From NCBI RefSeq assembly GCF_002944315.1, contig NZ_CP024314.1:2170001-2234000 (forward strand): a stretch of DNA of 64,000 bases, read 5' to 3'. Origin of the DNA: Rhizobium sp. NXC24. Its GTDB lineage: Bacteria; Pseudomonadota; Alphaproteobacteria; Rhizobiales; Rhizobiaceae. The notes below the pieces were generated by a model. That model saw only the letters and a list, made by a program, of their open reading frames with translations. It did not search any database and was not told the origin of the DNA. Below are positions 38,922 through 53,941 of this stretch, in pieces; the first letter of the stretch is position 1; each line of letters opens with the position of its first letter. A program made the position numbers and the translations under genes.

Positions 38922-38943
38922 TTTATGCTAACGTTAGCATAAA
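38922..38943. promoter_or_regulatory. LacI-type operator O1, perfect 22-bp palindrome
   Basis: The central 20 bases are TTATGCTAACGTTAGCATAA. The palindrome is perfect over 22 bp with the central CpG usual for LacI-family operators. It lies 137 bp centre-to-centre upstream of O2, which fits repression by looping in front of the hydroxyacid dehydrogenase gene. Confidence 0.8.
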
Positions 38944-39041
38944 TTTAATGATCGCAACGTCGAGCTATCGATGCGGCGATGCTGGATGCATCCGCGCTCC
39001 GAAACAGTTAGCGACAGCCTCCTATCGATCACCAATTTTCC

Positions 39042-39080
39042 TTGACTCAGATAGCACGCTTGCGCTAACGTTCGCATAAA
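39042..39080 (+). promoter_or_regulatory. Promoter with LacI-type operator O2
   Basis: TTGACT at 39042-39047 could be the -35 box. The operator copy TGCGCTAACGTTCGCA (39061-39076) covers the expected -10 region (TAACGT at 39066, 18-bp spacing). The start codon of the hydroxyacid dehydrogenase gene follows at 39095 with CAGGAGG as RBS. Confidence 0.65.
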
Positions 39081-39094
39081 CAGGAGGATCTTTC

Positions 39095-40057
39095 ATGACT
39101 CGCACCGTGTTGCTGACCGACTACGCATGGCCGGATGACAATGTGGAACGGGAGGTCATTGAGCGAGCCGGATTTACTCTCGTGAGCGGACCCGCAAAAC
39201 CATCCTCGGCCGCCGAAATTGATGCGTTGGCGGTCCAGCATCTGCCGGATGCCATTTTGACCTGCTGGGCCCAGGTCAGCGAAACCGCGATCGCGGCATC
39301 TCCAAATCTCAAGATTGTTGCTCGTCTGGGCGTTGGACTGGATAACATCGCTGTCGACGCAGCCTCGGAGCGCGGCGTCTGGGTGACGAACGTTCCTGAC
39401 TATTGTGTCGCGGAGGTTTCGGATCACGCGGTCGGCTTTGCCATCGCTTGGGCCCGCGGCCTGATCCATTTCGATCGTGAGGTTCGTAGCGGTCATTGGG
39501 ACCCCGCCTCCGCCAACCTTCGTCGACTGTCAGAACTAACCTGCGGCATCGTGGGATTTGGCCGGATTGGCCGAGCAACCGCAGCGAGGATGCAAGCGCT
39601 AGGCTGCAAAGTATTGGCGCACGATCCCTTTGCATCCAACCTCCCTGATAATGTCGAGCTGGTCGATTTTGAAGCCCTTCTTGGCAACAGCGACATCGTC
39701 GTGGTTCATGCGCCGCTTTCCGCATCGACCCACCACCTGATCGATCGGGACGCAGTTTCGAAAATGCGTCGAGGCAGCTTGTTGATCAACGTCAGCCGAG
39801 GCGGGGTTGTCGACACTGCGGCCGTGATCCATGGACTGGAATCCGGCATCCTGAGCGGCGTCGGCCTTGACGTTTTGGAAGATGAGCCGCGCGTTCCGCA
39901 AGAATTGATCAATCACCCTGGGGCGATGATCACCCCGCACGTCGCTTTTTCTTCCGACGCATCGCTCATCGAGTTACGCCGCCGCGCCGCGGAAGAAGTC
40001 GTCAGGGTTCTCTCTGGAGAAATGCCTGAACAGCCCCGCAACACGCCCCGCCGCTAG
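39095..40057 (+). CDS. D-2-hydroxyacid dehydrogenase family protein
   Basis: A 320-residue NAD(P)-dependent dehydrogenase of the D-isomer-specific family (SerA/CtBP-like). The Rossmann motif is GFGRIGRA (154-161). The catalytic residues are Arg235 (INVSRGG), Glu264 (LEDEP) and His282 (TPHVAF). It would reduce a 2-keto acid or oxidise a D-2-hydroxy acid in the cytoplasm. It starts the operon behind operators O1 and O2 and is followed 21 bases later by a kinase-fold gene. The substrate is unknown. Links to an enolase paralogue suggest a phosphorylated or dehydrated hydroxy acid in the same pathway. Confidence 0.87.
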   Translation: MTRTVLLTDYAWPDDNVEREVIERAGFTLVSGPAKPSSAAEIDALAVQHLPDAILTCWAQVSETAIAASPNLKIVARLGVGLDNIAVDAASERGVWVTNVPDYCVAEVSDHAVGFAIAWARGLIHFDREVRSGHWDPASANLRRLSELTCGIVGFGRIGRATAARMQALGCKVLAHDPFASNLPDNVELVDFEALLGNSDIVVVHAPLSASTHHLIDRDAVSKMRRGSLLINVSRGGVVDTAAVIHGLESGILSGVGLDVLEDEPRVPQELINHPGAMITPHVAFSSDASLIELRRRAAEEVVRVLSGEMPEQPRNTPRR

Positions 40058-40078
40058 ATCGCACAGGACACTCAATTC

Positions 40079-41074
40079 ATGTCTGTATCTGAGATGACCA
40101 TTTTCGATGTGTTTTTACAGAAGAGCGGGCTAAAAGAACCTTCAGAGGAAGCAATATACAAGCCTCTGACGGGCGGCGTCTCTTCTGATATCTATCGAGT
40201 TGAGCTTCCCGGGCGGGCCCTCTGCGTAAAACGGGCCCTTCCCAAGCTAAAAGTCGCTACCGACTGGCAAGCCCCGGTATCGAGAAATGAGTACGAATGG
40301 AACTGGATCTCCTTCGTAGCCAAACATTTCCCATCCGCTGTTCCCAAGCCGCTCGCCCATGACCCATCGTCGGGCGTGTTTGCGATGGAATTTCTCCCTG
40401 GCGACGAATATCCACTATGGAAAGCAGAGCTTCTTCAGGGGCATGTTGATCTGAAGGCCGCGGAAATTATCGGTCGACGGATCGGGCAGATTCATTCGGT
40501 GAGTGCGCGTATGCCCGGGCTACCCGAACAGTTCGATTCAACTCGCAACTTTTACGCTCTGCGGCTTGAGCCTTATCTGGTCGCTACCGCGGCCAAACAC
40601 CCATTCATCTCCGATCGTCTATCAGAATTGGTCGACCGTACCGCTAATACAAGGCACGCACTCGTTCATGGGGATGTAAGCCCCAAAAACATTCTCTTGA
40701 GCAAGATCGGCCCCGTCTTCCTGGATGCAGAATGCGCGTGGTTCGGCGATCCGGCCTTCGATTTGGCTTTCTGCCTGAATCACTTACTGTTGAAGAAGCT
40801 CATTGTAGAGAATGCAGCACCTGAGCTTGCGGCGTCCTTCGAGGCGCTGACTTCTGCGTACCTCAATGAGGTAGATTGGGAAGATCGGGAAGCTGTCGAA
40901 GCCCGGACATCGAGCCTTTTACCTGCCCTCTTTCTCGCTCGTGTCGATGGCAAATCGCCGGTCGAATACGTGACAGAGGAAAGCCAACGAATGCTCGTGC
41001 GCAAAGTCGCCGTCCCGTTGATCGCTTCGCCGCGCAGGAAACTGGCTGAAATCGCGCAAGCTTGGTTTTCCTAA
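40079..41074 (+). CDS. APH-fold phosphotransferase (small-molecule kinase)
   Basis: A 331-residue aminoglycoside-phosphotransferase-fold protein. Brenner motif HGDVSPKNILL gives catalytic Asp199 and metal-binding Asn204. DAECAWFGDPAFDLAF gives the second metal Asp217. Lys51 (CVKRAL) is the likely ATP lysine. Members outside the resistance group phosphorylate sugars, homoserine, choline or methylthioribose. It shares a LacI-type operator-controlled operon with a D-2-hydroxyacid dehydrogenase, so it may phosphorylate a hydroxy acid or sugar acid that later meets the enolase paralogue. That link is inference. A hairpin follows its stop directly. Confidence 0.82.
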   Translation: MSVSEMTIFDVFLQKSGLKEPSEEAIYKPLTGGVSSDIYRVELPGRALCVKRALPKLKVATDWQAPVSRNEYEWNWISFVAKHFPSAVPKPLAHDPSSGVFAMEFLPGDEYPLWKAELLQGHVDLKAAEIIGRRIGQIHSVSARMPGLPEQFDSTRNFYALRLEPYLVATAAKHPFISDRLSELVDRTANTRHALVHGDVSPKNILLSKIGPVFLDAECAWFGDPAFDLAFCLNHLLLKKLIVENAAPELAASFEALTSAYLNEVDWEDREAVEARTSSLLPALFLARVDGKSPVEYVTEESQRMLVRKVAVPLIASPRRKLAEIAQAWFS

Positions 41075-41076
41075 CG

Positions 41077-41098
41077 CCAGATAATGCACTATCTGGCT
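41077..41098 (+). other. Stem-loop just after the kinase stop
   Basis: GCCAGATA and TATCTGGC form a perfect 8-bp stem with a 6-base loop three bases after the stop codon. No T-run follows, so it may stabilise the 3' end rather than terminate alone. Confidence 0.5.
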
Positions 41099-41254: not shown

Positions 41255-41296
41255 AGGCTGGGAACGAATATTTGCTTGATGTGCGGGAGCCTCTGC

Positions 41297-43128: not shown

Positions 43129-44343
43129 TCAGGGGGTCAGGAACTCCTTCCCAGCCGGTCGGAAGTCCGCAGGCCAGACAGTCACCCAATCCTTTCCTTG
43201 AATTTGCTTGAGCTTCGTCGATGGCTTTCCGGCATTGAACTTGCCGTCGAAAGTCCTGGGCCCGACGACCGTCTTGACGGTATTCGAGCGCAACCACGCA
43301 GCCATCGCGGCGTCGTCCAACTTCCCTGCACCTTCTGCTGCCGCTGCAAGGATTTGCCACGCAGCATATTCCACGGCGGCCTGATACTCGGTGCGCGGAT
43401 ACGGGAAACCCGCCGCCTTCGCCTTGCTGTCATATGCGCTTACGAAATCCTGAGCGCCGTCATACTTGAGGAACGGCTCGTGCTCTTCAAACCAGGTCAG
43501 CGAGGTCAAGCCATTCGCTTTAGGGTGAGCTGCGGTCGGGCCGGGTGCCGGGAACAGGTAGAACTGGTTCTTTGGCTGGTAATCGATCCGGCTCATTGCA
43601 TCGAGAAGCTGCACGGCCTCCATTCCGATCGCACCGGACCACAGCAGGTCCGGATCAGCCGCCTTGATGCGGTTGGCGATTGCGCCGAAGTCCTTCGTGC
43701 CGAACTCGTATTCAAGATCCAGCACGTTCTTGATGCCACGCTTCTCAGCGACTTGCTGGCCGCCCTTGGCAATCGTCAGAGCCGACGGAAATTTGCTGGT
43801 GACAAACGCGATCGTCTTGGGAGGGGTCGGCAGGCTCGCATAGGCATCGAGAACGACCTCGGTGTCCGTCAGTTGCGGTTCGGCCCCGATCGGAAGAGAC
43901 GGGAACTGCAGCGGATACGGTGCGAGACTCGGGTCGCCAAGGCTGCTCTGAACAAGCATCTTCTTGAATCGAGCGGCAACGCCCATTGCTGCGATAATCG
44001 AGGACGTGCCATAGGGGCCCATCAGGAGGTCGACCTTGTCGGCCGTCACAAGGCGCTCATAGAGCGTTCGAGCATTGGCGGGAACCGATTGGTCGTCGAG
44101 AAGGACAAACTCCACCTTTCGTCCCAGAATACCGCCTTTGGCGTTGGTCTGTTCAACGAAAACCTCTGCCGCGAGTTTATGGATTGCGCCTACGCCCGCA
44201 AGCGGACCCGTCAACGGCAGCGTTCCGCCAACGCGGATCGGCCCCTCTTGGGCAAAAGCCCTCGGCATCGCGCTGAAGGCAGCCACGGCGGCGGCAGACC
44301 CGAGAAATGCTCGTCTGTTCAGTATAGTGGAATTCGCACTCAT
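43129..44343 (-). CDS. Branched-chain-type ABC substrate-binding protein (LivJ-like)
   Basis: A 404-residue periplasmic-binding protein. A twin-arginine-like signal (LNRRAFLGSAAAVAAF, ending PRAFAQ) precedes IRVGGTLPLTGPLAGVGAIHKLAAEVFVEQTNAKGGILGRKVE, the Peripla_BP_6 start. It belongs functionally to the LivHMGF genes at 47472-50759, although it is in another operon of the same operator set. Proteins of this group in catabolic clusters often bind aromatic carboxylates rather than amino acids. The ligand cannot be named. Confidence 0.87.
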   Translation of the reverse strand: MSANSTILNRRAFLGSAAAVAAFSAMPRAFAQEGPIRVGGTLPLTGPLAGVGAIHKLAAEVFVEQTNAKGGILGRKVEFVLLDDQSVPANARTLYERLVTADKVDLLMGPYGTSSIIAAMGVAARFKKMLVQSSLGDPSLAPYPLQFPSLPIGAEPQLTDTEVVLDAYASLPTPPKTIAFVTSKFPSALTIAKGGQQVAEKRGIKNVLDLEYEFGTKDFGAIANRIKAADPDLLWSGAIGMEAVQLLDAMSRIDYQPKNQFYLFPAPGPTAAHPKANGLTSLTWFEEHEPFLKYDGAQDFVSAYDSKAKAAGFPYPRTEYQAAVEYAAWQILAAAAEGAGKLDDAAMAAWLRSNTVKTVVGPRTFDGKFNAGKPSTKLKQIQGKDWVTVWPADFRPAGKEFLTP

Positions 44344-44425: not shown

Positions 44426-45427
44426 TCACCTCTTCGCCAGCTCTCCTGCGTAGCGTTCCAGCGTCATGGGGTTCGGCATTTTCTCGGGGTGCTCCAACGG
44501 TACTCCCGTAAATTCGCTGGCCTCGAAGAACCACTTCGAGACGGCCGGCATTCCCCAATGCACATTGGTGCTAAGGGACGCCGCGTCCCAACGAATGGGC
44601 TCCAATTCCGCGTCTATCGTGGTGTAGTGATTGTTGAAGAACTCCACCCGATGTCCATCGGGATCGCGCAGATAGACGAACAGGACTCCCGAAGGACCAT
44701 GGCGCCCGGGCCCGCGCTCAACGCTGTCTCCATATCCATAACGGCTGGCAAAGTCGCACACGGCGAAGATGTCGCTGCTTTCCGGAACCGTATAAGCAAA
44801 ATGATGCAGTTGCGGGCCGATGCCAGGCACCAACGCCAGGTCGAGGCAGACACCTTTGCGATACAGGAAGTTCGCAATGAGAGTGTCGCCTGCCGCAATA
44901 TATTCCGAAGTCCGGAAGCCGAGTTCGCCGTAGAATGCACTTAGACCCAGCGGATCGGCAACTATGACCTGGCAATGGTCGAGGCCCTGGGCTCGCGCGC
45001 CACGATGCTCATGCACCTCGAGAAACTTGCGGGGATGGACGCTCATGCTGGAGCAAAGCTCGATGCGGGCGCCCGACGGATCGCTGACAAGCAGGGTCCG
45101 TCCTTGATTTCGAACTTCGACCCATTCCGTCGGAAGCCCCTTCTCTTCAAAAAAGACCTTGGCCTTGTCGAGATCCTCCTCCAGGAACACCCGGTAACCG
45201 ATCCGCCTGCACGCCGGCTTCCCGCCGGTAGGTGCCAGGACAAGACTGTGATGGCAGGCCTCGGACAATCCGCGAAGGTAGGAAACACCGTCCGCGAATT
45301 CTGTTTCGACCAGGCCGCCGACATTGACATAGAAATCTCGGCTGCGCTCCACATCATTGACCTCAAGCACGACATGGCTGAAGCGCGTGATGTTGAAGGG
45401 AGGTTTCAAATTAACAGCCGGAAGCAT
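44426..45427 (-). CDS. Type I extradiol (catechol 2,3-) dioxygenase, VOC fold
   Basis: A 333-residue protein. The start at MLPAVNL is chosen because AGGA lies just before it; an ATG at 45442 is 15 bases upstream. There are two VOC domains. The C-terminal one has the complete iron triad His151 (GLDHCQV), His208 or His209 (QLHHFAY) and Glu262 (GHRVEFF), close to the spacing in homoprotocatechuate 2,3-dioxygenase. A C-terminal tail (residues about 275-333) resembles the lid of that enzyme. It should open a catechol-type ring. The first gene of its operon, directly behind operator O3. Confidence 0.84.
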   Translation of the reverse strand: MLPAVNLKPPFNITRFSHVVLEVNDVERSRDFYVNVGGLVETEFADGVSYLRGLSEACHHSLVLAPTGGKPACRRIGYRVFLEEDLDKAKVFFEEKGLPTEWVEVRNQGRTLLVSDPSGARIELCSSMSVHPRKFLEVHEHRGARAQGLDHCQVIVADPLGLSAFYGELGFRTSEYIAAGDTLIANFLYRKGVCLDLALVPGIGPQLHHFAYTVPESSDIFAVCDFASRYGYGDSVERGPGRHGPSGVLFVYLRDPDGHRVEFFNNHYTTIDAELEPIRWDAASLSTNVHWGMPAVSKWFFEASEFTGVPLEHPEKMPNPMTLERYAGELAKR

Positions 45428-45441
45428 CTCATCCTCATTCA

Positions 45442-45482
45442 TTTTGCTAACGTTAGCATAAAAGGGCCGGATCTTTTGTCAA
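45442..45482 (-). promoter_or_regulatory. Promoter with LacI-type operator O3
   Basis: On the minus strand a consensus -35 TTGACA (45482-45477) is followed after 16 bp by TATGCT (45460-45455). The palindrome TGCTAACGTTAGCA (45445-45458) overlaps this -10 box. Binding there would block the promoter of the dioxygenase operon. Confidence 0.8.
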
Positions 45483-45524: not shown

Positions 45525-46892
45525 CTAACCTACAGCGGCAGCCGCGGCTGGCTTTTCAGCCAAGTCCAGCGCCGACCATCCGGCGAACGAAGCCTCTTTT
45601 CCGAGGGCCTCCTCGATCCGGAGAACCTCGTTCCACTTGGCCATCCGTTCGGAACGGGAGAAGGATCCGACCTTGAGCTGCTTGGCATCCCACCCGACCG
45701 ACAGATGGGCGATCGTTACATCTTCCGTCTCACCGGATCTGGCCGAAACGATCGTCCGAAAACCCGCCTTCTTGGCAACGGAGAGCGCATCGAACGTCTC
45801 TGTGATCGTGCCCGCCTGGTTCGGCTTGATCAGAACCGCATTGGCGCTTTTATCCTTGATCGCTTCGGTTACCCGCGCCGCGTTCGTCACGAAAAAGTCG
45901 TCGCCGATGATCTGGCATCTGGAGCCGTAGCGCGCGGTAAATTCCTTGAACCCATCCGGATCGTCCTCGGCGAGCGGATCCTCGATGGAGACGATTGGAT
46001 AGGCCTTCAACCAGTCGCCAAGCATGTCGATCATCTCGGCCGTATCGAGCTGCCGATCTTCCAGTGCCAGCGAATACTTGCCGCCGCGACCGAATTCGGA
46101 GGCCGCAATGTCCAGTGATATCGCAACTTGGCCGCCTGGCTTCAGACCGGCAGCCTCGATCGAACGCACCAAGGCATCAAGAGCCTCTTCATTGCTGGTA
46201 AAGGCAGGCCAGTAGCCTCCCTCGTCCGCCACGCCCTGGAGCTTGCCGGTGCGTTTCATGATGTCGCCTGCCGCGCGGTAAACTTCAGCAGTCCACTCCA
46301 AAGCCTCCGAGAAAGTCGAGGCAGCAGGGCACATGATCATGAAATCCTGGACGTCTACCCGGCGCGCTGCGTGCGCTCCGCCTCCGAAAATCTGGATTTC
46401 CGGGAGCGGCATGGTAATTCCCGTGTCGGAGCCCGCGAGATACCGCCAGATCGGTTGATCGGCCGCGGCCGCTGCCGCGTGAAGCAGCGCCATCGACGTT
46501 GCTACCGACGCATTTCCACCCAATCTGCTCCGGTTTGGGGTGCCATCCAGCTCGATGATTGCACGATCCAGCTCGACTTGATCTTTGGCATCCCGGCCAA
46601 CCAGCAACTTGGCGATTTCACCGTTGACGGCGCCCAAGGCCTTATTGATGCCCAAGCCAGCAAGGGCGCTGCCGCCGTCACGAAGGTCTAGAGCTTCGCC
46701 GGTGCCGGTCGATGCGCCGGCAGGTGCGATGGCCCTGCCGATCGCGCCAGACGCCAGCTCGATCTCTACCTCAACGGTGGGCCTGCCACGGGAATCCCAG
46801 ACGCGACGGCCCTGCACTTTTCTGATTTCGGTGTTGGTCATGTTCAGTTGGTCCACAAAGTCGGATTGAGATTTTGGATCATTGAGGCTCAC
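45525..46892 (-). CDS. Enolase paralogue with substituted active-site residues
   Basis: A protein of 455 residues from a GTG that overlaps the cupin stop; MTNTEIRK at residue 18 is the canonical enolase start. The whole enolase fold is present, with metal ligands Asp261, Glu304 and Asp331, general base Lys356 (LIKPNQ), Lys407 (KVGS), Glu224 (DEGGY) and His174 (GGGAHA). Three active-site positions differ from true enolases: the loop SGAST is AGAST (Ala58), the QEFMI glutamate is Asp183, and the phosphate-binding SHRSGETED is SARSGETED (Ala384). It probably performs a dehydration on a substrate other than 2-phosphoglycerate. The LacI-type operator set and the kinase in the same regulon support a catabolic role. 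Confidence 0.85.
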   Translation of the reverse strand: MSLNDPKSQSDFVDQLNMTNTEIRKVQGRRVWDSRGRPTVEVEIELASGAIGRAIAPAGASTGTGEALDLRDGGSALAGLGINKALGAVNGEIAKLLVGRDAKDQVELDRAIIELDGTPNRSRLGGNASVATSMALLHAAAAAADQPIWRYLAGSDTGITMPLPEIQIFGGGAHAARRVDVQDFMIMCPAASTFSEALEWTAEVYRAAGDIMKRTGKLQGVADEGGYWPAFTSNEEALDALVRSIEAAGLKPGGQVAISLDIAASEFGRGGKYSLALEDRQLDTAEMIDMLGDWLKAYPIVSIEDPLAEDDPDGFKEFTARYGSRCQIIGDDFFVTNAARVTEAIKDKSANAVLIKPNQAGTITETFDALSVAKKAGFRTIVSARSGETEDVTIAHLSVGWDAKQLKVGSFSRSERMAKWNEVLRIEEALGKEASFAGWSALDLAEKPAAAAAVG

Positions 46893-47449
46893 AGGCCGTC
46901 ATCGTAATCCGTTGTTTCGGGGGTTCTTGCGCCAACCAGCACCACGGCGATGCTTGCCGGTTTGTCGCTTTTATTTCGCCAGGCGTGACGCGTTCCGTTC
47001 TGCACGAAGGCGTCGAACTGACCCAAGCGGGTCTCATTGCCATCGTCGAGTTCCATCCAGATTTCGCCGTCGAGAACGATGCCATAATCGACGGTGGGAG
47101 TTTGATGTTTGCCATCCGGCTGGAAGCGTTCGGCCAAACCTGGGCTGACCGCCAGATTCTCCGCCCTGGCCGCCGGGCCATCGAAATCCGGAGACATAAA
47201 AACAGCATCTGGCGGGAACGTTAGCACTAAAAAGCGCGTTTCGCCGGGCTGAGGAACGAAGCTTGTCACCAGCGGAGTTGGATCGTGTCCGTTAAATGGG
47301 ACGGCCGTGGAAGTCGATGTCGACCAGACCATCCGCGACACCAATCCAGGGATCGTTCTGAATATGTCCGTACGCGGAACGGCGCCGTCTTGGGCGAACC
47401 TGGCAACGCCCTGACTGCAATGCTCCGTCACGACGCGTCGAACATGCAC
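46889..47449 (-). CDS. Cupin-domain protein
   Basis: 186 residues from the GTG at 47449, which has GGGGGAG five bases upstream. The open frame to 47509 would overlap livF and is less likely. The C-terminal half is a single cupin (HQTPTVDYGIVLDGEIWMELDDGNETRLGQFDAFVQNGTRHAWRNKSDKPASIAVVLVG), with fewer metal histidines than usual. The DYGIVLDGEIWMELDDG pattern is common in cupins of aromatic and sugar catabolic clusters. Its role may be an isomerase, hydrolase or sensor. The enolase-like gene starts on its stop (GTGA). Confidence 0.78.
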   Translation of the reverse strand: MHVRRVVTEHCSQGVARFAQDGAVPRTDIFRTIPGLVSRMVWSTSTSTAVPFNGHDPTPLVTSFVPQPGETRFLVLTFPPDAVFMSPDFDGPAARAENLAVSPGLAERFQPDGKHQTPTVDYGIVLDGEIWMELDDGNETRLGQFDAFVQNGTRHAWRNKSDKPASIAVVLVGARTPETTDYDDGL

Positions 47450-47471
47450 GGGAACTCCCCCGCTCGAATTT

Positions 47472-48179
47472 TCAGATACCAAGATACGCCTCCCTGATGC
47501 TTGAATCATTGATGAGAATCTCAGGCGCTCCGGATGCCGTCACGCGGCCTTGCTCGATCACGTAGGCCTGATGGGCAATTTCAAGCGCCTTGTTCACGTT
47601 CTGCTCGACAAGCAGCACGGCTACGCCTCGCTCATTGATCATCTGGATGATTTTGAACATTTCCCCGACGATCAAAGGCGACAGCCCGAGCGACGGCTCG
47701 TCCATGAGCAGCACGCGCGGCTTGGCCATCAGGCCACGGCCGATCGCAACCATTTGCTGCTGCCCACCCGACAAGGAGCCCGCCAATGAATCCTGGCGCT
47801 CTTTCAGAACAGGGAAAAGCTGAAACACCTCAGCGAGCGTAGCATCGCGATCAGCCCGAGCGATCGAGCGGTACGCACCGAGCAACAGGTTGTCGAGGAC
47901 CGTCATCGCGGTGAAGAGCCGGCGCCCTTCCGGGACGACTGCTATGCCGTAGTCGCAGACCCGATGGCTGGGCACTTTGGAAACGTCGTTACCCTGGATA
48001 ACGATCTTTCCCTTGTGCGGCCGAAGAATTCCGGCGATGGCATTTACCAGCGTGCTCTTCCCTGCTCCGTTCGGGCCGACGACGGAAACGATCTCGCCTG
48101 GCCTTACACTGATAGACAGGTCCCACAGAGCGATCGCATCTCCGTAGCCAACCTCGATCTTATCGACCTCAAGCAGCAT
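47472..48179 (-). CDS. livF: Branched-chain-type ABC ATP-binding protein LivF
   Basis: A 235-residue ATPase of the LivF type: Walker A GPNGAGKST, signature LSGGQQQMVAIGRGL, Walker B VLLMDEPSLGLSP, and the LivF-specific start VDKIEVGYGDAIALWDLS. It pairs with the LivG domain fused to LivM in the preceding gene. It overlaps the end of that gene by 11 bases. Confidence 0.9.
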   Translation of the reverse strand: MLLEVDKIEVGYGDAIALWDLSISVRPGEIVSVVGPNGAGKSTLVNAIAGILRPHKGKIVIQGNDVSKVPSHRVCDYGIAVVPEGRRLFTAMTVLDNLLLGAYRSIARADRDATLAEVFQLFPVLKERQDSLAGSLSGGQQQMVAIGRGLMAKPRVLLMDEPSLGLSPLIVGEMFKIIQMINERGVAVLLVEQNVNKALEIAHQAYVIEQGRVTASGAPEILINDSSIREAYLGI

Positions 48180-49911
48180 AACTGCCTCCCAGATATGCGC
48201 TGACCACTGCTGGATCTCTCATCGTTTCGCTTGGATGCCCAAGCGCCAGAACTTTGCCTTGATCCAGCACCGCGACACGGTCCGCCAGCGCGACAACCGC
48301 ACGCATGAGGTGTTCAACGAAGATGATCGCCGTACCGCCAGCCTTGATACGCTTGATCATTTCGACTGCGTGGTCGACCTCGGCTGGGTTCAAGCCACAA
48401 AGCACCTCATCAAGCAGGAGCAGGCGTGGTTTTGCGGCCAGCGCTCTGGCGAATTCGACAAACTTTCTATCATGCAGGTTCAAGGCCTCGGGAAGCACGT
48501 TGGCCTTGTCAGCCAGGCCAGTGAAGGCGAGCGCTTCCCTGGTGACTGCGTCGACCGCAGCCACGCCCATGCGATCCGCGCTGCCAAATTTCGCGCAGAG
48601 CCGAATGTTTTCGAGGACGGTGAGATTATCGAACAGGCGCGGGATCTGGTAAGTTCGCGCCACGCCCTGTTGCGCGATCAGATGCGGTGATCGACCGGAA
48701 ATCTCCTCGCCTTCCAGTGTGATCTTACCGGAGGTCATGGAGTAGTGGCCGCTGATCATGTTGATCAGTGTGGACTTGCCGGAACCATTTGGCCCAACCA
48801 GGGCCAGGATTTCGCCCCGCCGGACGTCCAGGGTTACTCCAGTCAAGGCACGGATACCGCCAAAGGATTTCGTGACATCTTCGCACTTCAGAAGCACCGA
48901 ACCGGAATCTGACGCGGTTGAAGGCGGGAGCTCAATAGCAGCCTGAGCGGCTGCCTCCGGTGCTCCAGTTTCTTTGCGATTGGCGGCGAACTTGCGAATA
49001 AGGCTGGGAACAATGCCAGACGGCAGCACCAGGATTACAACTATCAGCGCAAGAGCCACGCCCGCGCGGCCGAATTCCGCATGGGCACCGCTGACGATAG
49101 CGCTCTGCAGCACGGTGATGATGACTGCGCCGATTGCGGGTCCAGCCCAATGGCGAGCGCCGCCAAGAATGCTCATGAGCACGACATAGAGAGGAACGGT
49201 CACCGCAAACGTCTCGCCAACCGTGACGTAGCCTACATATACGGCATGGATCGCACCCATTCCGCCGGCAAGCGCCGACGAGACGGCAAACGACATCAGC
49301 TTATAGCGAAACGTCGGAACGCCTTTCACCTCTGCGACGTCTTCATCGTCGTGGATTGCAAGCAAGCCCTGACCGAATTTGCTGTGAAAGATGATGTAGG
49401 ACGTCGCCAGCGCAGCAAGAGCCGCGATAAGCCCGAACATGTAGAGGGAGCCAGACGCCGTCACGCCGATCATCGGGATTTCGATCCCTGAGAGGAATAC
49501 GCCGGTGCCCGAGTCCAGCGCAGTGTTCGACACAATGGCCGCGATGACAAACGTTACCGACAGCGTCAGCAGCGCGAAGAACTCGCCGCGCAAAGCTCCG
49601 GAGCGAAAGACAACCAAGCCAATCAGCACGGCAATTGCGGCCGCAAGCAGTGCCGCAGCAGGTATCGTCGCGACGAAGGGCCATGACAACTGCGTCGCCA
49701 GCGTGGCCGTTGTGTAGACGCCAATCCCGAAAAATGCGGCGTGGCCAAAACTCCAGTAGCCCGTGTAACCGCTCAGGATGCCCCAGCTCGTTGCCAGCAC
49801 GACCCAGAAGAAGATAATGTACAGGTAGGACAGGTAGTAATCCGCCATTCCCAAGTAAGGCAGCGAGGCCAAAATCGCCACGCCCAGCGCTGTGATTAGA
49901 AGCTTTTTCAT
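48169..49911 (-). CDS. Fused branched-chain-type ABC permease and ATPase (LivM-LivG)
   Basis: A 580-residue fusion. Residues 1-305 are LivM, with about eight membrane helices (SGYTGYWSFGHAAFFGIGVY and HDDEDVAEVKGV, the EAA-like loop). A linker at about 306-338 is rich in Ala and Pro. Residues 339-580 are LivG, with Walker A GPNGSGKST at 373-381 and Walker B LLLLDEVLCGLNPAE. The ABC signature is unusual (LNLHDRKFVEFARAL instead of LPYGQQR-type). A single-chain LivM-LivG fixes one membrane and one ATPase domain together, to pair with LivH and LivF. The frame is open upstream to 50175, but that part is a livH shadow. Confidence 0.87.
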   Translation of the reverse strand: MKKLLITALGVAILASLPYLGMADYYLSYLYIIFFWVVLATSWGILSGYTGYWSFGHAAFFGIGVYTTATLATQLSWPFVATIPAAALLAAAIAVLIGLVVFRSGALRGEFFALLTLSVTFVIAAIVSNTALDSGTGVFLSGIEIPMIGVTASGSLYMFGLIAALAALATSYIIFHSKFGQGLLAIHDDEDVAEVKGVPTFRYKLMSFAVSSALAGGMGAIHAVYVGYVTVGETFAVTVPLYVVLMSILGGARHWAGPAIGAVIITVLQSAIVSGAHAEFGRAGVALALIVVILVLPSGIVPSLIRKFAANRKETGAPEAAAQAAIELPPSTASDSGSVLLKCEDVTKSFGGIRALTGVTLDVRRGEILALVGPNGSGKSTLINMISGHYSMTSGKITLEGEEISGRSPHLIAQQGVARTYQIPRLFDNLTVLENIRLCAKFGSADRMGVAAVDAVTREALAFTGLADKANVLPEALNLHDRKFVEFARALAAKPRLLLLDEVLCGLNPAEVDHAVEMIKRIKAGGTAIIFVEHLMRAVVALADRVAVLDQGKVLALGHPSETMRDPAVVSAYLGGSYAA

Positions 49912-49913
49912 GG

Positions 49914-50759
49914 TCAAATCACCGGTTTGCGCAAGAGGATGACGATGAGCACGCTGAATGCGACGAGCGGCGCCCAAGCGGGATTGACGACGGACATGGT
50001 AAGGCTCTCGGCCACGCCAATCAGCATACCGGCACCCAGCGCGCCGATAGGGCTGCCCAATCCTCCAATGATGGCGACGGCAAATACGACCCCAATCCAG
50101 GCCTCGATTTGAGATGGAGCCAAAGTTCCAATCAGGGCAATGAAGACACCCGCGATGCCGGCCGTAGCTGAGCAAAAGCCGGCTAGAATGTATGAGACGC
50201 GGGTGGAATTGATCCCAAAAGCCGACGCTACGGGGGCGTCATGGGCAGCGGCACGCAGGGCCTTGCCGAGCATGGTCTTGTTCAACGCGTACCAGGCCAT
50301 TGTGGCAAGCACCCCTGCACAGACAAACGCTGAAAGATCCAATACGGGCACGAAGATCGGTCCGAGCCGGATGGTGCTCTGGGCATAGGGTGTTTCATAG
50401 CGAAGGAAGTCAGCCGACCAGATCCATTGGATCAGCGACTCGATCAGGATCGTGACGCCGAACGTCACCAAGAGAGAGGCGAATTCCTTCACCTTGAAGC
50501 GCACGAACAAGCTGTGCAACGCAACTCCGAGCGCGAAGAACAGCGGCGCGATCAGAAGAGCGCTCAAATATGCCGGGATGCCATAGACGGTCCCGAGCTG
50601 GTAGGTCAGGTAAGCGCCAAGGAACGCCAGCGCGAAATGGCTGAGGTTCACAAGCTTCAACAGCCCCCAGCTCAGGCTGAGGCCCATCGCCAGCAGGCCA
50701 TAGATCCCACCCAGCAAGACGCCACCGACAGCGGATTGCAAGAAAAGAGCAAGAGTCAT
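49914..50759 (-). CDS. livH: Branched-chain-type ABC permease LivH
   Basis: A 281-residue membrane protein starting MTLALFLQ. Family segments: GGVLLGGIYGLLAMGLSLSWGLLKLVNLSHF and the LGKALRAAAHDAPVASAFGIN loop that contacts the ATPases. The ATG overlaps the stop of a 20-codon leader frame, and this gene itself has no strong RBS, so its translation may depend on the leader. First large gene of the operon livH - livMG - livF - cupin - enolase paralogue. Confidence 0.9.
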   Translation of the reverse strand: MTLALFLQSAVGGVLLGGIYGLLAMGLSLSWGLLKLVNLSHFALAFLGAYLTYQLGTVYGIPAYLSALLIAPLFFALGVALHSLFVRFKVKEFASLLVTFGVTILIESLIQWIWSADFLRYETPYAQSTIRLGPIFVPVLDLSAFVCAGVLATMAWYALNKTMLGKALRAAAHDAPVASAFGINSTRVSYILAGFCSATAGIAGVFIALIGTLAPSQIEAWIGVVFAVAIIGGLGSPIGALGAGMLIGVAESLTMSVVNPAWAPLVAFSVLIVILLRKPVI

Positions 50760-50818
50760 CGGGATCCACGTCCTTCTGTGGACACGATGGTCGACTCCGG
50801 GAACACCAGAATATCCAT
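50756..50818 (-). CDS. Possible 20-residue leader peptide upstream of livH
   Basis: Behind operator O4 lies a strong RBS (GGGAGGAGG) and, eight bases on, an ATG opening a frame of 20 codons (MDILVFPEST...). It ends in TGA overlapping the livH ATG (ATGA). This arrangement implies translational coupling: ribosomes that finish the leader reinitiate on livH. It is not a member of a known leader family that I recognise and has no run of one amino acid that would suggest attenuation. Confidence 0.5.
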   Translation of the reverse strand: MDILVFPESTIVSTEGRGSR

Positions 50819-50838
50819 ACGTTATGCCTCCTCCCGAT

Positions 50839-50856
50839 TGCGCTAACGTTAGCATA
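50839..50856 (-). promoter_or_regulatory. LacI-type operator O4 (livH operon)
   Basis: TGCGCTAACGTTAGCATA, with a perfect 12-bp core GCTAACGTTAGC at 50842-50853, directly upstream of the leader RBS. TATGCT on its edge (50856-50851) could be the -10 box. A TTGACA at 50889-50884 is too far away (27 bp) to pair with it, so the exact promoter is uncertain. Confidence 0.75.
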
Positions 50857-51138
50857 GATATTCATCCCACAGCGAAGCCTCCGTGTCAACGGCGTTCAAG
50901 AGGCTAATTCGCTGCCTCTTCGCTGCGGGCGCATCGACGCGGGACGAAAAAATCCCAGAAAGTGAGATCAAATCTATGAGAAATCTACTAGTTTAGAATC
51001 GCAACTCGATACCGAGCTTCAGTATCCGGGGCGAAAATTAGATTAGTTCAATTTGGCAGAAACGTCTGCGATCTCGGAGTTTGACAACTGCGACGCCAAT
51101 GCTATCGTTGGCGAAAGTGATCATTCGAGCCAAACACA
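50857..51138. promoter_or_regulatory. Divergent control region livH / lacI-type gene, with weak operator O5
   Basis: The 280-base divergent region. On the plus strand TTGACA (51081-51086) and TATCGT (51103-51108, 16-bp spacing) form a likely promoter for the regulator gene. GCTATCGTTGGC at 51101-51112 matches the operator core at 10 of 12 positions and covers this -10 box, suggesting weaker autoregulation. No other feature was recognised. Confidence 0.55.
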
Positions 51139-52149
51139 ATGGTAACAATTAAAGACATCGCCGCCATACTGCAAGTTTCACCCTCAACCGTCGGTCGCGC
51201 TCTTGCCGACGATCGACGTATCAGCGCCGAGATGAAGCGAAAGGTGAATGAAGCTGCAGCGCAAGCGGGGTACGTTGCCAATCGTGCTGCACGGATGATG
51301 CGCGGGGTTCAGAGTAATCTCGTTGGGCTGATCGTTCCAGATATCAGAAACAGCTTTTATTCGACTATTGCACACGCTCTCTCGCGGTGCCTTCTTTCGG
51401 CGAATTACCAACTGACTTTGTGCGAAACCGATGACGACAGAATGCATGAGCTTCGTCACATCAAGGAACTTACTAGCGCCAACGTTGCGGGGATCATTCT
51501 GGTCCCGAGCGCAAAACCTCATCCCGATTCTGCGCGAATCCTGAAGATGACGCCTCACATCCAATTGCTGCGAAAGGCACCACTGCTCGGTGACCAATGG
51601 TTTGGGATTGATGACCGACGGGCACTTTACGAGAGTACTGAACATATCATCAATGAAGGTCACAAACGGATCGCTTACATCGGCGGCACGGAAGAACTGC
51701 CCACTGGCGCGGCTCGCGTGCAGGGTTTCCGGGAGGCCGTAAAAAGCTCCGGTCAAGCGATCACCGTTCGTGAGGAGCTTGGCGCGCCCTCCTCGCCCGA
51801 ATTCGGACGGGAGGCCGTGCGTCGCCTACTTTCCTTAAAGGATCGACCCACGGCGCTCGTGATCGGTGCGGTACAAAACACCTCAGGAGTTATTGATGAA
51901 CTCCAGGACCAAGCTTTAAGCATCCCCCAAGACATTTCCGTCATCGGATTCGGAGATGAGCTCGGGTACCGGTGGTGGGGTCCAGGATTGACCACCGTAC
52001 AGCTACCTGTTTCGGAGTTGGCAACGGCTTGCGGACTTTGGTTTTTGCATCACCTTCAGAATAAGTCTGACCTTAGCAAGCCGTACAGCTTCATCTCTCC
52101 GCCTCAATTGATTGTTCGTGGCAGTACGGCGACCCCATCGAAGCAATGA
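51139..52149 (+). CDS. LacI-family transcriptional regulator
   Basis: A 336-residue repressor. The helix-turn-helix is at residues 3-25 (TIKDIAAILQVSPSTVGRALADD), followed by the hinge region NRAARMMRG and a periplasmic-binding-protein-like sensor domain (LVGLIVPDIRNSFYSTIAHALSRCL; ISVIGFGDELGYRWWGPGLTTV). It lies inside the cluster whose operons all carry TGCTAACGTTAGCA-type palindromes, the operator type bound by this family, so it is the obvious local regulator. The inducer is unknown and would be the substrate or an intermediate of the pathway. Confidence 0.9.
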   Translation: MVTIKDIAAILQVSPSTVGRALADDRRISAEMKRKVNEAAAQAGYVANRAARMMRGVQSNLVGLIVPDIRNSFYSTIAHALSRCLLSANYQLTLCETDDDRMHELRHIKELTSANVAGIILVPSAKPHPDSARILKMTPHIQLLRKAPLLGDQWFGIDDRRALYESTEHIINEGHKRIAYIGGTEELPTGAARVQGFREAVKSSGQAITVREELGAPSSPEFGREAVRRLLSLKDRPTALVIGAVQNTSGVIDELQDQALSIPQDISVIGFGDELGYRWWGPGLTTVQLPVSELATACGLWFLHHLQNKSDLSKPYSFISPPQLIVRGSTATPSKQ

Positions 52150-52182
52150 CGGCGTCATTTCCCCACGTTTCAAGGCCATGGG

Positions 52183-52233
52183 GAAAAAGGGGCCGTCCGC
52201 CATACGACCACACCTCTTTCTCCGGACGGCCCC
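52183..52233 (-). terminator. Intrinsic terminator between convergent genes
   Basis: GGGGCCGTCCG (52189-52199) pairs with CGGACGGCCCC (52223-52233). On the minus strand the stem is followed by TTTTT (52187-52183), so it terminates the gene ending at 52314. It may also slow transcription from the LacI-type gene. Confidence 0.75.
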
Positions 52234-52313
52234 TCATCCGCCACTGCGATCTTGAGGAGAGGCCGCTTTAAGGACCAGAGCAAAGTAAAGGCCTCGATGG
52301 TGATCTCAGGTCC

Positions 52314-52850
52314 CTACTTCTTGTAGGAGTCCTCAAGATCTACTTTCAACGCGCCCATCAACCGTACGCCGGAATTGTACCACGCGACATTAATTGCCAA
52401 TTCGACCAATTGCTTCTCGGAAAGGAATTTCGCGATACCGTTCCAAACCTCGTCGGAAACATCGACATGCAGGGTCGAGTCCTTCGCGAAAGCCATCACC
52501 GCCCTTTCCTCTTCCGTGAATAAGTCCGAGGTCTCGAATTCAGGGATAGCTTGGAACTGCTCCTCGGTGAGTCCTGCCTTCAGACCATGCGAATGGTGAT
52601 GAACGATCTCATATTCCGAGTTGGTGCAGTAACCTACCGTAAGGATCGCCATCTCTCTCAGCTTCGGACTGAGGTCAGAAGCACGAACAGCATTGGCGTA
52701 GGTCAGGAAGTCATTCAAAATTGCTGGTGCATTTGCGAGTGCAAGGAAAATGTTCCCTGTCGGCACCTTCCTTTCCTTCAGCAGGCGCTCATTGAGCGCC
52801 GCGTGCGTGTCTGCCAGTTCTGAATTCGGAACATATCTAACTCGTGCCAT
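52314..52850 (-). CDS. Carboxymuconolactone decarboxylase (CMD/AhpD-fold) family protein
   Basis: A 178-residue helical protein. The CMD core is LSPKLREMAILTVGYCTNSEYEIVHHHSHGLKAGLTEEQFQAI, then LVELAINVAWYNSGVRLM. The redox CxxC of AhpD is absent (only Cys-Thr-Asn-Ser), while the EIVHHHSHG histidines are kept, so a decarboxylase, lyase or hydrolase role is more likely than peroxidase. It has its own operator copy O6 about 80 bp upstream. It would act on a lactone or ring-cleavage-derived acid. Confidence 0.82.
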   Translation of the reverse strand: MARVRYVPNSELADTHAALNERLLKERKVPTGNIFLALANAPAILNDFLTYANAVRASDLSPKLREMAILTVGYCTNSEYEIVHHHSHGLKAGLTEEQFQAIPEFETSDLFTEEERAVMAFAKDSTLHVDVSDEVWNGIAKFLSEKQLVELAINVAWYNSGVRLMGALKVDLEDSYKK

Positions 52851-52929
52851 TACTCCACCCTTGGGTTGTCATCGAAGATCACTATTGGTCAAGTGCCACA
52901 ACGAAGGCCACCGCGAAAATTGACCCGTT

Positions 52930-52947
52930 ATGCGCTAACGTTTGCAT
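52930..52947 (-). promoter_or_regulatory. LacI-type operator O6 (CMD gene)
   Basis: TGCGCTAACGTTTGCA at 52931-52946, one mismatch from a symmetric core, upstream of the CMD-family gene start at 52850. No clear -35 box was seen next to it. Confidence 0.7.
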
Positions 52948-53012
52948 TACTAACATCGAGTCACCCGGGATCAATCGCTTCTTTTCCTAAACAAATCCCG
53001 AAAGGTCTCGTT

Positions 53013-53891
53013 CTAATTTGCTTTCTGGGAGTCCTCACCACGGCTGAAGCGAGCCGACCGCGCGTGAAATGGGCGCGGGTTGCCATGCACACCTTGGACG
53101 CTCTCAAGCATGGCTCGATGCGCGGCAAGTACAACTGGATTCTTCAAAATGCCGATGCCGGGGATCTCCACTTCGAGATCATCACCCGGACTGATGGGGC
53201 CTACCCCGGCAGGAGTGCCCGTCATGATAGCATCGCCTGGCAAAAGCGTCATGAACCGGCTCAAATAAGCAACGATGTCAGCCACTGAGTAAACTAGATC
53301 CCTTGTGTTTCCGGACTGCTTCACCGCACCATTTTGACGAAGAATGACGTCGAGATTTGTGGGATCAAGGTCGGTTACGATCGCCGGCCCCATGGGCGCA
53401 AAGGTGTCGTATCCTTTCCCGGCCAAAAGGCAGCCGAACTTGCTTTCCTGACGCTGTATGATGCGATCGCTGATGTCGTTGCCGCATGTATATCCAAGGA
53501 CGTGGCTCAGTGCCTGGTCCTTGCTGATGTGCCGACCACCCTTGCCAATGATCGCGACTAGCTCAGCCTCGTAATGTACGATTTCACCGTCTCGCGGGAA
53601 TTCGATCCCATCTCCGTTGCCGCTCGCTGCGGTGCTAGGCTTCATGAACAAAACCGGAAGTGAAGGCTGCTCTTTCCCTGACTCGTTGGTATGTTCTCGA
53701 TAATTGTATGCCACTCCAAAAATGCGGGGACGGTTGACTGGGCATAGTAAGCGAACCGTGGACAGATCGTCCACCTTTCCAGTTCCTTTTATCTCGCTGA
53801 ATGGCTCTCCAGCGATCCGCACGATACTGCCGCCGCCGCTATCGACACCATAGTGAATCCCATCGGCCGCCTCGTATCGCAAAATTCTCAT
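53013..53891 (-). CDS. Fumarylacetoacetate hydrolase family protein
   Basis: A 292-residue protein starting MRILRYEA, with GGAG eight bases upstream (an ATG at 53903 is the alternative). The FAH metal-binding and active-site segments are visible: RIFGVAYNYREH, VHYEAELVAIIG, GYTCGNDISDR and GDAIMTGTPAGVG. Family members hydrolyse or isomerise ring-cleavage products (2-hydroxyhepta-2,4-dienedioate isomerase, acylpyruvases) or decarboxylate oxaloacetate-like acids. With the extradiol dioxygenase in the same operator set, it probably acts on an opened ring. Operator O7 lies directly upstream. Confidence 0.86.
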   Translation of the reverse strand: MRILRYEAADGIHYGVDSGGGSIVRIAGEPFSEIKGTGKVDDLSTVRLLCPVNRPRIFGVAYNYREHTNESGKEQPSLPVLFMKPSTAASGNGDGIEFPRDGEIVHYEAELVAIIGKGGRHISKDQALSHVLGYTCGNDISDRIIQRQESKFGCLLAGKGYDTFAPMGPAIVTDLDPTNLDVILRQNGAVKQSGNTRDLVYSVADIVAYLSRFMTLLPGDAIMTGTPAGVGPISPGDDLEVEIPGIGILKNPVVLAAHRAMLESVQGVHGNPRPFHARSARFSRGEDSQKAN

Positions 53892-53906
53892 TTCGATCTC
53901 CATTTT

Positions 53907-53941
53907 TGCTAACGTTAGCGCAAACCATCGGTCGTCGTCAA
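53907..53941 (-). promoter_or_regulatory. Promoter with LacI-type operator O7
   Basis: On the minus strand TTGACG (53941-53936) is a likely -35 box. The palindrome core GCTAACGTTAGC (53908-53919) covers the -10 position (TAACGT, 18-bp spacing, the same geometry as O2), just before the FAH-family gene. Confidence 0.75.

What the first reader, a model, noticed from the sequence alone, without database searches (positions are those of the whole stretch)
38922..53941. A self-contained LacI-type regulon of a pathway I cannot match to any described one
Seen: six strong copies and one weak copy of a TGCTAACGTTAGCA-type palindrome lie before five operons and the regulator gene itself, in 15 kb, several placed on the -10 box. 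Known: central-CpG palindromes are bound by LacI-family repressors. The genes combine an importer, extradiol dioxygenase, FAH-family and CMD-family proteins (ring-opening chemistry) with a hydroxyacid dehydrogenase, an APH-fold kinase and an enolase paralogue (phosphorylated hydroxy-acid chemistry). Inference: uptake of a carboxylate, ring cleavage or lyase steps, phosphorylation and an enolase-type dehydration in one pathway.
Basis: partly seen in the sequence, partly recalled or inferred. Interest (0 to 1): 0.88.

Follow-up and report, generated by a model that had tools for sequence, protein, structure and literature searches.

The report
Cross-phylum regulon with an altered enolase
A stretch of a Rhizobium plasmid holds a real, probably repressor-controlled set of genes for breaking down a still unidentified compound, possibly aromatic, and it includes a relative of the sugar-burning enzyme enolase whose active site has been remodelled.

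Summary
Six strong TGCTAACGTTAGCA-type palindromes and one weak one precede five operons and lacI. In the 7.3 Mb genome all four places with at most one mismatch lie in this cluster. Of 30 Rhizobium genomes searched, the 15 with the regulator carry 3-6 such sites each (60 of 61 within 20 kb of lacI); the 15 without carry one in all.

The regulon recurs in Burkholderiales, Sphingobium and Rhodococcus, with operators fitting TGCTAWCGWTAGCA. Relatives add PEP carboxylase, 3-hydroxybutyryl-CoA dehydrogenase, a glutaryl-CoA-dehydrogenase-like gene and a phenol-hydroxylase relative. The window strain has lost ppc, leaving an operator.

Three labels mislead. The 'enolase' belongs to a separate clade with both C3-hydroxyl side-chain contacts changed (E168D, H373A) and has an APH-fold kinase partner. 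The 'extradiol dioxygenase' lacks His200. The 'alcohol dehydrogenase' lacks its catalytic zinc ligands.

Best reading: catabolism of an unidentified, probably aromatic, acid by a ring module, a reductase-kinase-enolase module of new specificity and a glutaryl-CoA module. Regulon near certain; new enolase specificity likely; substrate unknown. Six literature searches aimed at this gene set found no description.

The parts
38926..38939 (.). operator TGCTAACGTTAGCA (0 mismatches); orphan here, heads ppc in relatives
38940..39062 (+). scar of a lost ppc gene: 123 bases between two operators where relatives have ppc; a possible last-codon remnant ALRNS-stop
   Evidence: inference for the remnant
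39063..39076 (.). operator CGCTAACGTTCGCA, TTGACT 17 bases before its CTAACG
39095..40057 (+). DH2: D-isomer-specific 2-hydroxyacid dehydrogenase
   Evidence: Pfam PF02826 179 bits; PDB phosphoglycerate dehydrogenase kin
40079..41074 (+). APH-fold kinase; same regulon as the enolase, adjacent to it in other lineages
   Evidence: PF01636 68.8 bits
41297..41851 (-). FMNr: NAD(P)H-dependent FMN reductase; its homologue has its own operator in Ensifer and Pandoraea
   Evidence: PF03358
41905..43038 (-). ADH-like medium-chain reductase without catalytic zinc ligands
43129..44343 (-). SBP: periplasmic substrate-binding protein (Peripla_BP_6)
44426..45442 (-). VOC: HpaD-like extradiol dioxygenase homologue, metal ligands kept, His200 to Leu
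45445..45458 (.). operator TGCTAACGTTAGCA (0 mismatches) before VOC operon
45525..46847 (-). ENO: D-type enolase (E168D, H373A)
46889..47494 (-). CUP: cupin-domain protein
   Evidence: PF07883
47472..48179 (-). LivF-type ABC ATPase
48169..49917 (-). fused LivM permease - LivG ATPase
49914..50765 (-). LivH permease
50841..50854 (.). operator CGCTAACGTTAGCA (1 mismatch) before LivH operon
51100..51113 (.). weak operator TGCTATCGTTGGCG before lacI, TTGACA upstream
51139..52149 (+). LacI-family repressor
   Evidence: PF00356 38.7 bits (cut-off 27), PF13377
52314..52850 (-). CMD-family protein
   Evidence: PF02627 48.4 bits
52933..52946 (.). operator CGCTAACGTTTGCA (2 mismatches) before CMD
53013..53888 (-). 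FAH-family protein, kin of HpaG/acylpyruvate hydrolases
   Evidence: PF01557 204 bits
53907..53920 (.). operator TGCTAACGTTAGCG (1 mismatch) before FAH
32839..38848 (.). adjacent glutarate block: LysR(-), glutaryl-CoA dehydrogenase, CaiB-type CoA-transferase, EtfB, EtfA, 3-hydroxybutyryl-CoA dehydrogenase; outside the finding but linked to the regulon in several lineages

Best explanation
A LacI-family repressor holds shut, at about seven TGCTAWCGWTAGCA-type operators some of which overlap the -10 box, a catabolic pathway for one imported carboxylate, most likely an aromatic acid with an oxygenated side chain. Three modules cooperate. (1) The ring module (VOC, zinc-less ADH-like reductase, cupin, CMD, FMN reductase, FAH) opens and reduces the ring-derived chain. 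(2) DH2 reduces a 2-oxo acid to the D-2-hydroxy acid, the APH-fold kinase phosphorylates its 2-OH, and the D-type enolase removes the C2 proton and the C3 group from a substrate larger than 2-phosphoglycerate, giving a substituted enol-phosphate or PEP. (3) The linked glutaryl-CoA block takes a five-carbon product to acetyl-CoA; PEP carboxylase, present in the regulon of relatives but lost here, supplies oxaloacetate. Shown by sequence: the regulon, its membership in relatives, the residue changes, the kinase-enolase pairing, the linkage to glutaryl-CoA genes. Inferred: repression, order of steps, enolase substrate class, aromatic substrate.
For: Regulon: all four sites with at most 1 mismatch in the own genome are here; of 61 such sites in 15 Rhizobium genomes with the regulator 60 lie within 20 kb of lacI, and 15 genomes without it hold 1 in all; the same families sit behind the same sites in Burkholderiales, Sphingobium and Rhodococcus (17 of 18 sites on three plasmids inside the clusters). 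In Ensifer the only site far from the cluster precedes an FMN reductase gene. Enolase: E168D and H373A in 49 of 49, 5 of 5 and 3 of 3 further D-type sequences, against Glu and His in 25 of 25 canonical ones; one clade, support 99/99; in E. coli enolase Glu167, Lys392 and His369 bind the hydroxyl that mimics the C3-OH of 2-PGA (PMC6863902, passage read), so two of three C3-OH contacts are changed and the phosphate contacts kept; an APH kinase gene abuts the enolase gene in 29 of 29 loci tested outside the Rhizobium/Burkholderiales regulon clusters and is in the same regulon within those. Glutaryl-CoA: block beside the regulon in Rhizobium, Pararhizobium, Paraburkholderia, Caballeronia, Pseudoduganella and Sphingobium, between regulon genes in Paraburkholderia; 3-hydroxybutyryl-CoA dehydrogenase directly behind an operator in Sphingobium; it and a gcdH-like gene follow the kinase-enolase genes on the same strand in R. 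pseudokoreensis. ppc: 15 of 15 Rhizobium genomes with the regulator other than the own one (one match N-terminally incomplete) and 0 of 8 without. Aromatic: PcaK-like transporter beside an operator in Sphingobium; HsaAB-like hydroxylase genes behind a one-mismatch site in Rhodococcus.
Against: No substrate is identified. VOC has lost His200 and the ADH its catalytic zinc, so ring cleavage and alcohol oxidation are not given. PEP carboxylase points to true PEP, but the enolase changes point away from 2-phosphoglycerate; I cannot reconcile both with one scheme. Several other members of the enolase clade sit among sugar-acid genes. The glutarate block has no operator of its own in Rhizobium and was not found in the stretches fetched for Pandoraea, Ensifer or Cupriavidus (etfA remnants only in C. 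necator). The hydroxylase and the PcaK-like transporter are each seen in one lineage only, and both score below the NCBIfam cut-offs (146 against 450 for HsaA; 386 against 418.55); so does the window's glutaryl-CoA dehydrogenase (202 against 470). Ensifer has the kinase but no enolase, VOC, cupin, CMD or FAH in the stretch fetched. Repressor binding was not measured.
Confidence: 0.55

Rival explanations
1. Plain glycerate route: DH2 reduces hydroxypyruvate to D-glycerate, the kinase makes 2-phosphoglycerate, the enolase is merely an inducible isozyme making PEP, and ppc makes oxaloacetate.
For: ppc has its own operator in Rhizobium, Pararhizobium and Ensifer and lies in the cluster in Cupriavidus and Rhodococcus; DH2 resembles phosphoglycerate dehydrogenases and glyoxylate/hydroxypyruvate reductases; sugar-acid contexts of some other members could yield glycerate (inference).
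Against: The own genome has a canonical enolase. Both C3-OH contacts are changed throughout one clade while 25 of 25 canonical enolases examined keep them. An isozyme needs no such change.
Confidence: 0.2
2. A sugar-acid pathway with no aromatic ring: VOC, ADH-like, cupin and CMD act on a polyhydroxy acid, and FAH is a diketo-acid hydrolase as in the L-rhamnonate route.
For: Kinase-enolase pairs lie beside galactarate-dehydratase-like, DHDPS-family, gluconolactonase-like and sugar ABC genes elsewhere; FAH is related to L-2,4-diketo-3-deoxyrhamnonate hydrolase at 138 bits; VOC has lost His200.
Against: Those contexts show no VOC or ADH-like hit in the stretches compared (annotation); the regulon proper has a PcaK-like transporter in Sphingobium and a phenol-hydroxylase relative in Rhodococcus; glutaryl-CoA is a reduced product not expected from sugar acids (my reasoning).
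Confidence: 0.2
3. Mimosine breakdown, since the strain comes from Leucaena.
For: Best record is Rhizobium sp. CB3060 from Leucaena leucocephala; VOC is a dioxygenase homologue.
Against: No aminotransferase among the proteins of the operons scanned; orthologous clusters in rhizobia from bean and pea, in Pandoraea, Cupriavidus and Rhodococcus. The mimosine literature was seen as a listing only.
Confidence: 0.03
4. Chance palindromes beside unrelated genes.
For: The raw count at up to 2 mismatches is not above the reversed control (10 against 35).
Against: Concentration in one locus and co-occurrence with the regulator across two phyla.
Confidence: 0.02

Closest known systems
LacI-family catabolic repressor regulons
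   Same: N-terminal LacI HTH and periplasmic-binding-type domain; central-CpG palindromes at own and target promoters
   Different: About seven operators over several operons, kept from Rhizobium to Rhodococcus; effector unknown
Canonical enolase (phosphopyruvate hydratase)
   Same: Fold family, Mg ligands, K345 base, E211, phosphate contacts
   Different: E168D and H373A throughout; APH kinase partner gene; separate clade
Homoprotocatechuate 2,3-dioxygenase (HpaD)
   Same: 174 bits to PDB entries; 2-His-1-Glu site, Tyr257, His248, Arg243 kept
   Different: His200 to Leu and Arg293 to Thr; also Asn157 to Gln and Trp192 to Phe, which some relatives outside the regulon share; below the NCBIfam HpaD cut-off (276.5 against 321.4)
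Zinc alcohol dehydrogenases
   Same: Domains and the four structural-zinc cysteines
   Different: All three catalytic-zinc ligands replaced, as also in two R. etli relatives outside the regulon
gcdR-gcdH-gcoT glutarate cluster of Pseudomonas putida (PMC6667623, passages read)
   Same: Order LysR, glutaryl-CoA dehydrogenase, CoA-transferase at 32839-36237
   Different: Sits beside or inside a LacI regulon with ETF and 3-hydroxybutyryl-CoA dehydrogenase genes
Dehydratase / 4-dehydrogenase / FAH-hydrolase sugar-acid route (L-rhamnonate type; recalled)
   Same: FAH-family hydrolase; SDRs beside the kinase-enolase pair in Roseibium and Paracoccus
   Different: A kinase plus enolase stands where a sugar-acid dehydratase would be expected

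Membership tests
LacI-family regulator | LacI HTH plus periplasmic-binding-type effector domain | tested here: met
   PF00356 38.7 bits (cut-off 27), PF13377 90.4 bits
LacI-family regulator | palindromic operators at own gene and targets, co-occurring with the regulator | tested here: met
   the site at lacI itself is weak in the window (3 mismatches)
LacI-family regulator | binds the operator and releases it with an effector | not testable with these tools
   needs EMSA or footprinting
Canonical enolase | Mg ligands D246, E295, D320; K345; E211; R374/S375 | tested here: met
Canonical enolase | C3-OH contacts E168 and H373 (E. coli E167, H369) | tested here: not met
   Asp and Ala in every D-type sequence tabulated (49, 5 more, 3 more); role from PMC6863902
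HpaD-type extradiol dioxygenase | 2-His-1-Glu metal site | tested here: met
   24 of 24 distinct orthologues
HpaD-type extradiol dioxygenase | acid-base His200 | tested here: not met
   Leu in 24 of 24 and in three further regulon members; His in three relatives outside the regulon. The catalytic role of His200 is recalled
Zinc alcohol dehydrogenase | catalytic zinc ligands Cys/His/Cys | tested here: not met
   Val/Leu/Tyr in 24 of 24
Homoprotocatechuate (Hpa) pathway | aldehyde dehydrogenase, hydratase and HpaI aldolase with HpaD | tested here: not met
   none among the proteins of the operons scanned; the rest of the genome was not searched for them
Glutarate catabolic cluster | LysR - glutaryl-CoA dehydrogenase - CoA-transferase order | tested here: met
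   window 32839-36237; 73% and 61% identity to genes annotated gcdH and CoA transferase in Sphingobium. The NCBIfam glutaryl-CoA dehydrogenase model is hit below its cut-off (201.9 against 470); activity not tested

The most novel reading that the evidence does not exclude
APH-fold kinase plus D-type enolase is an undescribed two-enzyme, ATP-dependent 'dehydratase' that converts 2,3-dihydroxy (or 3-substituted 2-hydroxy) acids, through their 2-phosphates, into substituted enolpyruvate phosphates. One branch serves a cross-phylum aromatic-acid pathway that splits its substrate into a C3 unit entering at PEP level and a C5 unit entering as glutaryl-CoA; the other serves sugar-acid pathways.
Probability: 0.35. 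Interest if true: 0.87.

Novelty: new variant of a known kind. Interest (0 to 1): 0.72.

Why it matters
Enolase is a textbook enzyme with one reaction. A separate clade with both C3-hydroxyl side-chain contacts replaced, and with an APH kinase gene next to it in 29 of 29 loci tested outside the Rhizobium/Burkholderiales clusters, suggests a second reaction among proteins that public annotation calls phosphopyruvate hydratase. The regulon gives a direct handle: a repressor and operator that together name the pathway's genes in two phyla, so the inducer and substrate could be found with one reporter strain. It also bears on what soil and root bacteria eat.

Tried and rejected
Rejected: chance sites; mimosine (no aminotransferase in the operons scanned; hosts of other carriers; literature seen as a listing only); a standard Hpa meta-cleavage pathway (no aldehyde dehydrogenase, hydratase or aldolase among the proteins scanned); independent origin of the E168D/H373A changes in Rhodococcus and Sphingobium (the tree gives one clade, 99/99); FAH cleavage of an acyl-PEP (it would need a vinyl carbanion; my own chemical reasoning). 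Considered, not testable here: direct elimination of another leaving group at C3, giving PEP itself.

Six were aimed at this gene set and found no description of it; four were aimed elsewhere (52 and 71 enolase residues, 72 glutarate, 79 mimosine), of which 71 and 72 gave the enolase and glutarate papers cited. Gene calling in the unnamed high-GC loci was too unreliable to use beyond homology hits; 20 ORFs chosen from it were scanned with Pfam. In the RB-TnSeq paper PMC12543098 (passages) 'enolase' does not occur in the main text and 'LacI' occurs once, not in the passages I saw. The M. tuberculosis enolase paper PMC10619443 (passages) confirms the lysine base and the glutamate acid but I found nothing there on the His373 equivalent; it also places Glu163 (the E168 equivalent by my alignment) at the carboxylate, which is less clear-cut than PMC6863902. 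The ppc scar alignment supports only the operators and flanks; the last-codon remnant is suggestive.

Dropped or incomplete rows: Ensifer BR816 (L040/L153) lacks ENO, VOC, cupin, CMD and FAH in the stretch fetched, and its APH and ADH match in two pieces; four family-level LacI hits of 41-43% identity were not counted as orthologues; of 132 Rhizobium genomes without the regulator only 15 served as controls and 8; the 57 sites were not all placed; of the D-type enolase loci, 20 were fetched with flanks; loci were returned only for the best matches, so the 25 canonical enolases are those; the kinase-adjacency count leaves out the Rhizobium and Burkholderiales regulon clusters, where kinase and enolase lie in different operons.

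Full report
What is there. The window is 64 kb of a 7.3 Mb Rhizobium genome; the finding's stretch matches Rhizobium sp. CB3060 plasmid NZ_CP104159.1 (isolated from Leucaena) at 100% and Rhizobium sp. CB3171 at 98.7%. They precede DH2-APH (two sites), VOC-SBP-ADH-FMNr, LivHMGF-cupin-enolase, CMD, FAH and lacI. Across 19 relatives' loci 26 of 86 sites have a TTGACA-like box, 21 of these with 16-17 bases to the CTAACG of the operator, against 133 of 1720 random positions spread evenly (a few sites are counted twice where stretches overlap). So a good part of the operators, in the window at least 39063 and 53907, cover the -10 box.

Is it more than chance? In the own genome the four places with at most one mismatch are all in this cluster; with exactly two mismatches there are six, two of them here. 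The total number is not unusual, since the reversed control pattern scores 35 against 10; the concentration is. The regulator occurs in 16 of 148 Rhizobium genomes. In 15 of those (own genome excluded) there are 61 sites with at most one mismatch, 60 within 20 kb of lacI; in 15 of the 132 genomes without the regulator there is one. All 14 other records with the regulator that I searched have 2-7 sites.

The regulon reaches two phyla. LacI orthologues (62-95% identity) lie in Rhizobium, Ensifer, Pseudoduganella, Pandoraea, Paraburkholderia and Caballeronia. Around them, behind the same operator, lie DH2, APH, cupin-ENO, VOC-CMD-ADH and FAH. A search with VOC and ADH found the set in Sphingobium sp. 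TomTYG74 and in Rhodococcus opacus PD630 and R. pseudokoreensis, an actinomycete genus, with LacI at 47% and 55% identity. There the operators fit TGCTAWCGWTAGCA; on the three plasmids 17 of 18 sites with at most one mismatch lie inside the clusters. Importers vary: Liv-type ABC in Rhizobium, Pararhizobium and Pseudoduganella, MFS in the other Burkholderiales seen and in Rhodococcus, a PcaK-like symporter in Sphingobium.

(a) PEP carboxylase has its own operator in Rhizobium sp. CIAT894, Pararhizobium and Ensifer and lies in the Cupriavidus and Rhodococcus clusters. In Rhizobium it is the only ppc match per genome: 15 of 15 with the regulon (one N-terminally incomplete), 0 of 8 without, and none in the window's own genome. 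Where relatives have operator-ppc-operator-DH2, the window has two operators with 123 bases between them: ppc was lost and its operator stayed. (b) FMN reductase homologues have their own operator in Pandoraea and at a distant place in Ensifer. (c) 3-Hydroxybutyryl-CoA dehydrogenase and a cytochrome b561 gene diverge from an operator in Sphingobium; in R. pseudokoreensis the dehydrogenase and a gene 48% identical to the window's gcdH follow DH2-ENO-APH-FAH on one strand. In the window a LysR - glutaryl-CoA dehydrogenase - CoA-transferase - EtfBA - 3-hydroxybutyryl-CoA dehydrogenase block lies at 32839-38848, the order of the known gcdR-gcdH-gcoT cluster (PMC6667623, passages), and in Paraburkholderia the block lies between regulon genes. 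In the stretches fetched it was not found for Pandoraea or Ensifer, and only as etfA remnants in Cupriavidus necator. (d) Rhodococcus has a two-component hydroxylase related to HsaA/HsaB (below those models' cut-offs) behind a one-mismatch site.

Three enzymes are not what their names say. ENO: in 49 of 49 D-type enolases the residues equivalent to yeast Glu168 and His373 are Asp and Ala; metal ligands, Lys345, Glu211, Arg374 and Ser375 are kept. In one search five more D-type sequences show the same and 25 of 25 canonical ones keep Glu and His. Sphingobium and Rhodococcus regulon enolases, only 46% identical to the window's, carry the same two changes. All 21 D-type sequences in a 50-row tree form one branch with support 99/99. 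In E. coli enolase the hydroxyl of inhibitor SF2312 that mimics the C3-OH of 2-PGA is bound by Glu167, Lys392 and His369 (PMC6863902, passage); the first and last are the changed pair (the numbering match yeast 168/373 to E. coli 167/369 is mine). A second paper puts the Glu163 of M. tuberculosis enolase, which I align with this Glu, at the carboxylate (PMC10619443, passages). So the phosphate side is intact and the C3 side is remodelled, which argues for a substrate with another group at C3. An APH kinase gene lies beside the enolase gene in 29 of 29 loci tested (28 within 300 bases on the same strand, one at 331); these were fetched because of their enolase or VOC and do not include the Rhizobium and Burkholderiales regulon clusters, where the kinase is in the same regulon but another operon. 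D-type enolases at E 1e-150 or better occur in 32 of 397 sampled genomes of the order. VOC: closest to homoprotocatechuate 2,3-dioxygenase, with both His and the Glu of the metal site kept, but His200 is Leu and Arg293 is Thr in 24 of 24 distinct orthologues and in Sphingobium and Rhodococcus, while three relatives outside the regulon keep His200. Whether a His200-less enzyme cleaves rings cannot be told from sequence; among the PDB chains listed are homoprotocatechuate dioxygenases with Cys or Gln at that position (alignments), so the fold tolerates change there. ADH: the three catalytic-zinc ligands are Val, Leu and Tyr and the four structural-zinc cysteines remain; this is shared by two relatives outside the regulon. 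A reductase role is my inference.

How it may work. In each lineage where the whole locus was seen (Ensifer excepted) LacI, VOC, ADH-like, cupin, CMD family, DH2, APH, ENO and FAH occur together. Two further contexts split this set. R. etli IE4803 has ADH-like, cupin, FMN reductase, FAH and a His200-bearing VOC with a P450, but no ENO, APH or DH2 hit in the 21 kb fetched. Roseibium and Paracoccus have APH-ENO-FAH-SDR among sugar-uptake genes without VOC, and several other loci have sugar-acid-type neighbours. That suggests a ring module and a hydroxy-acid module joined here, plus a glutaryl-CoA outlet. The simplest carbon sum is a C6-C3 compound giving C5 (glutaryl-CoA), C3 (PEP level) and CO2; this sum is conjecture. 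PEP carboxylase argues for PEP as a product, the enolase changes argue against 2-phosphoglycerate as its precursor; this tension is unresolved.

Comparison and novelty. As a LacI regulon it is an ordinary kind. As a pathway I could not match it: six literature searches aimed at the gene set in an open-access library gave nothing, which does not cover subscription journals. The enolase clade with its kinase partner is the new element. The verdict is a new variant of a known kind, with a fair chance that the kinase-enolase pair is a new reaction module.

Noticed in passing
G000:C1:1690014-1691222 and G000:C4:177250-178458 (L199, L200): Two further enolase paralogues in the same genome, 33% identical to the finding's enolase, with other active-site changes (His159 to Tyr, Glu211 to Ser, His373 to Gly): a second unexplained enolase family.
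   Followed up: partly
L205 (Rhizobium etli IE4803 plasmid, CP007644.1 139197-160192): A related cluster with ADH-like, cupin, P450, FMN reductase, FAH and a His200-bearing VOC, and two CGCTAACGTTCGCA sites, but no kinase or enolase hit: perhaps a sister pathway.
   Followed up: partly
47213-47226: A 3-mismatch operator-like site inside the cupin gene; in ten Rhizobium loci a 2-mismatch form (TGGGAACGTTAGCA) lies at the same place.
   Followed up: no
24353-32535: Rieske-type oxygenase-like ORFs, a GST-like ORF, an amidohydrolase-like ORF and a BMP-type ABC importer upstream of the glutarate block (judged by eye from the translations only).
   Followed up: no
53970-54320 and 54478-55962: A fragment matching ISL3 transposase next to the FAH operator, followed by a DUF1254/DUF1214 protein.
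   Followed up: no
L201:8027-8356; L155:9400-9717: A NIPSNAP-family gene in the Sphingobium glutarate block; an ORF that looks similar by eye lies near the Cupriavidus ppc operator.
   Followed up: partly
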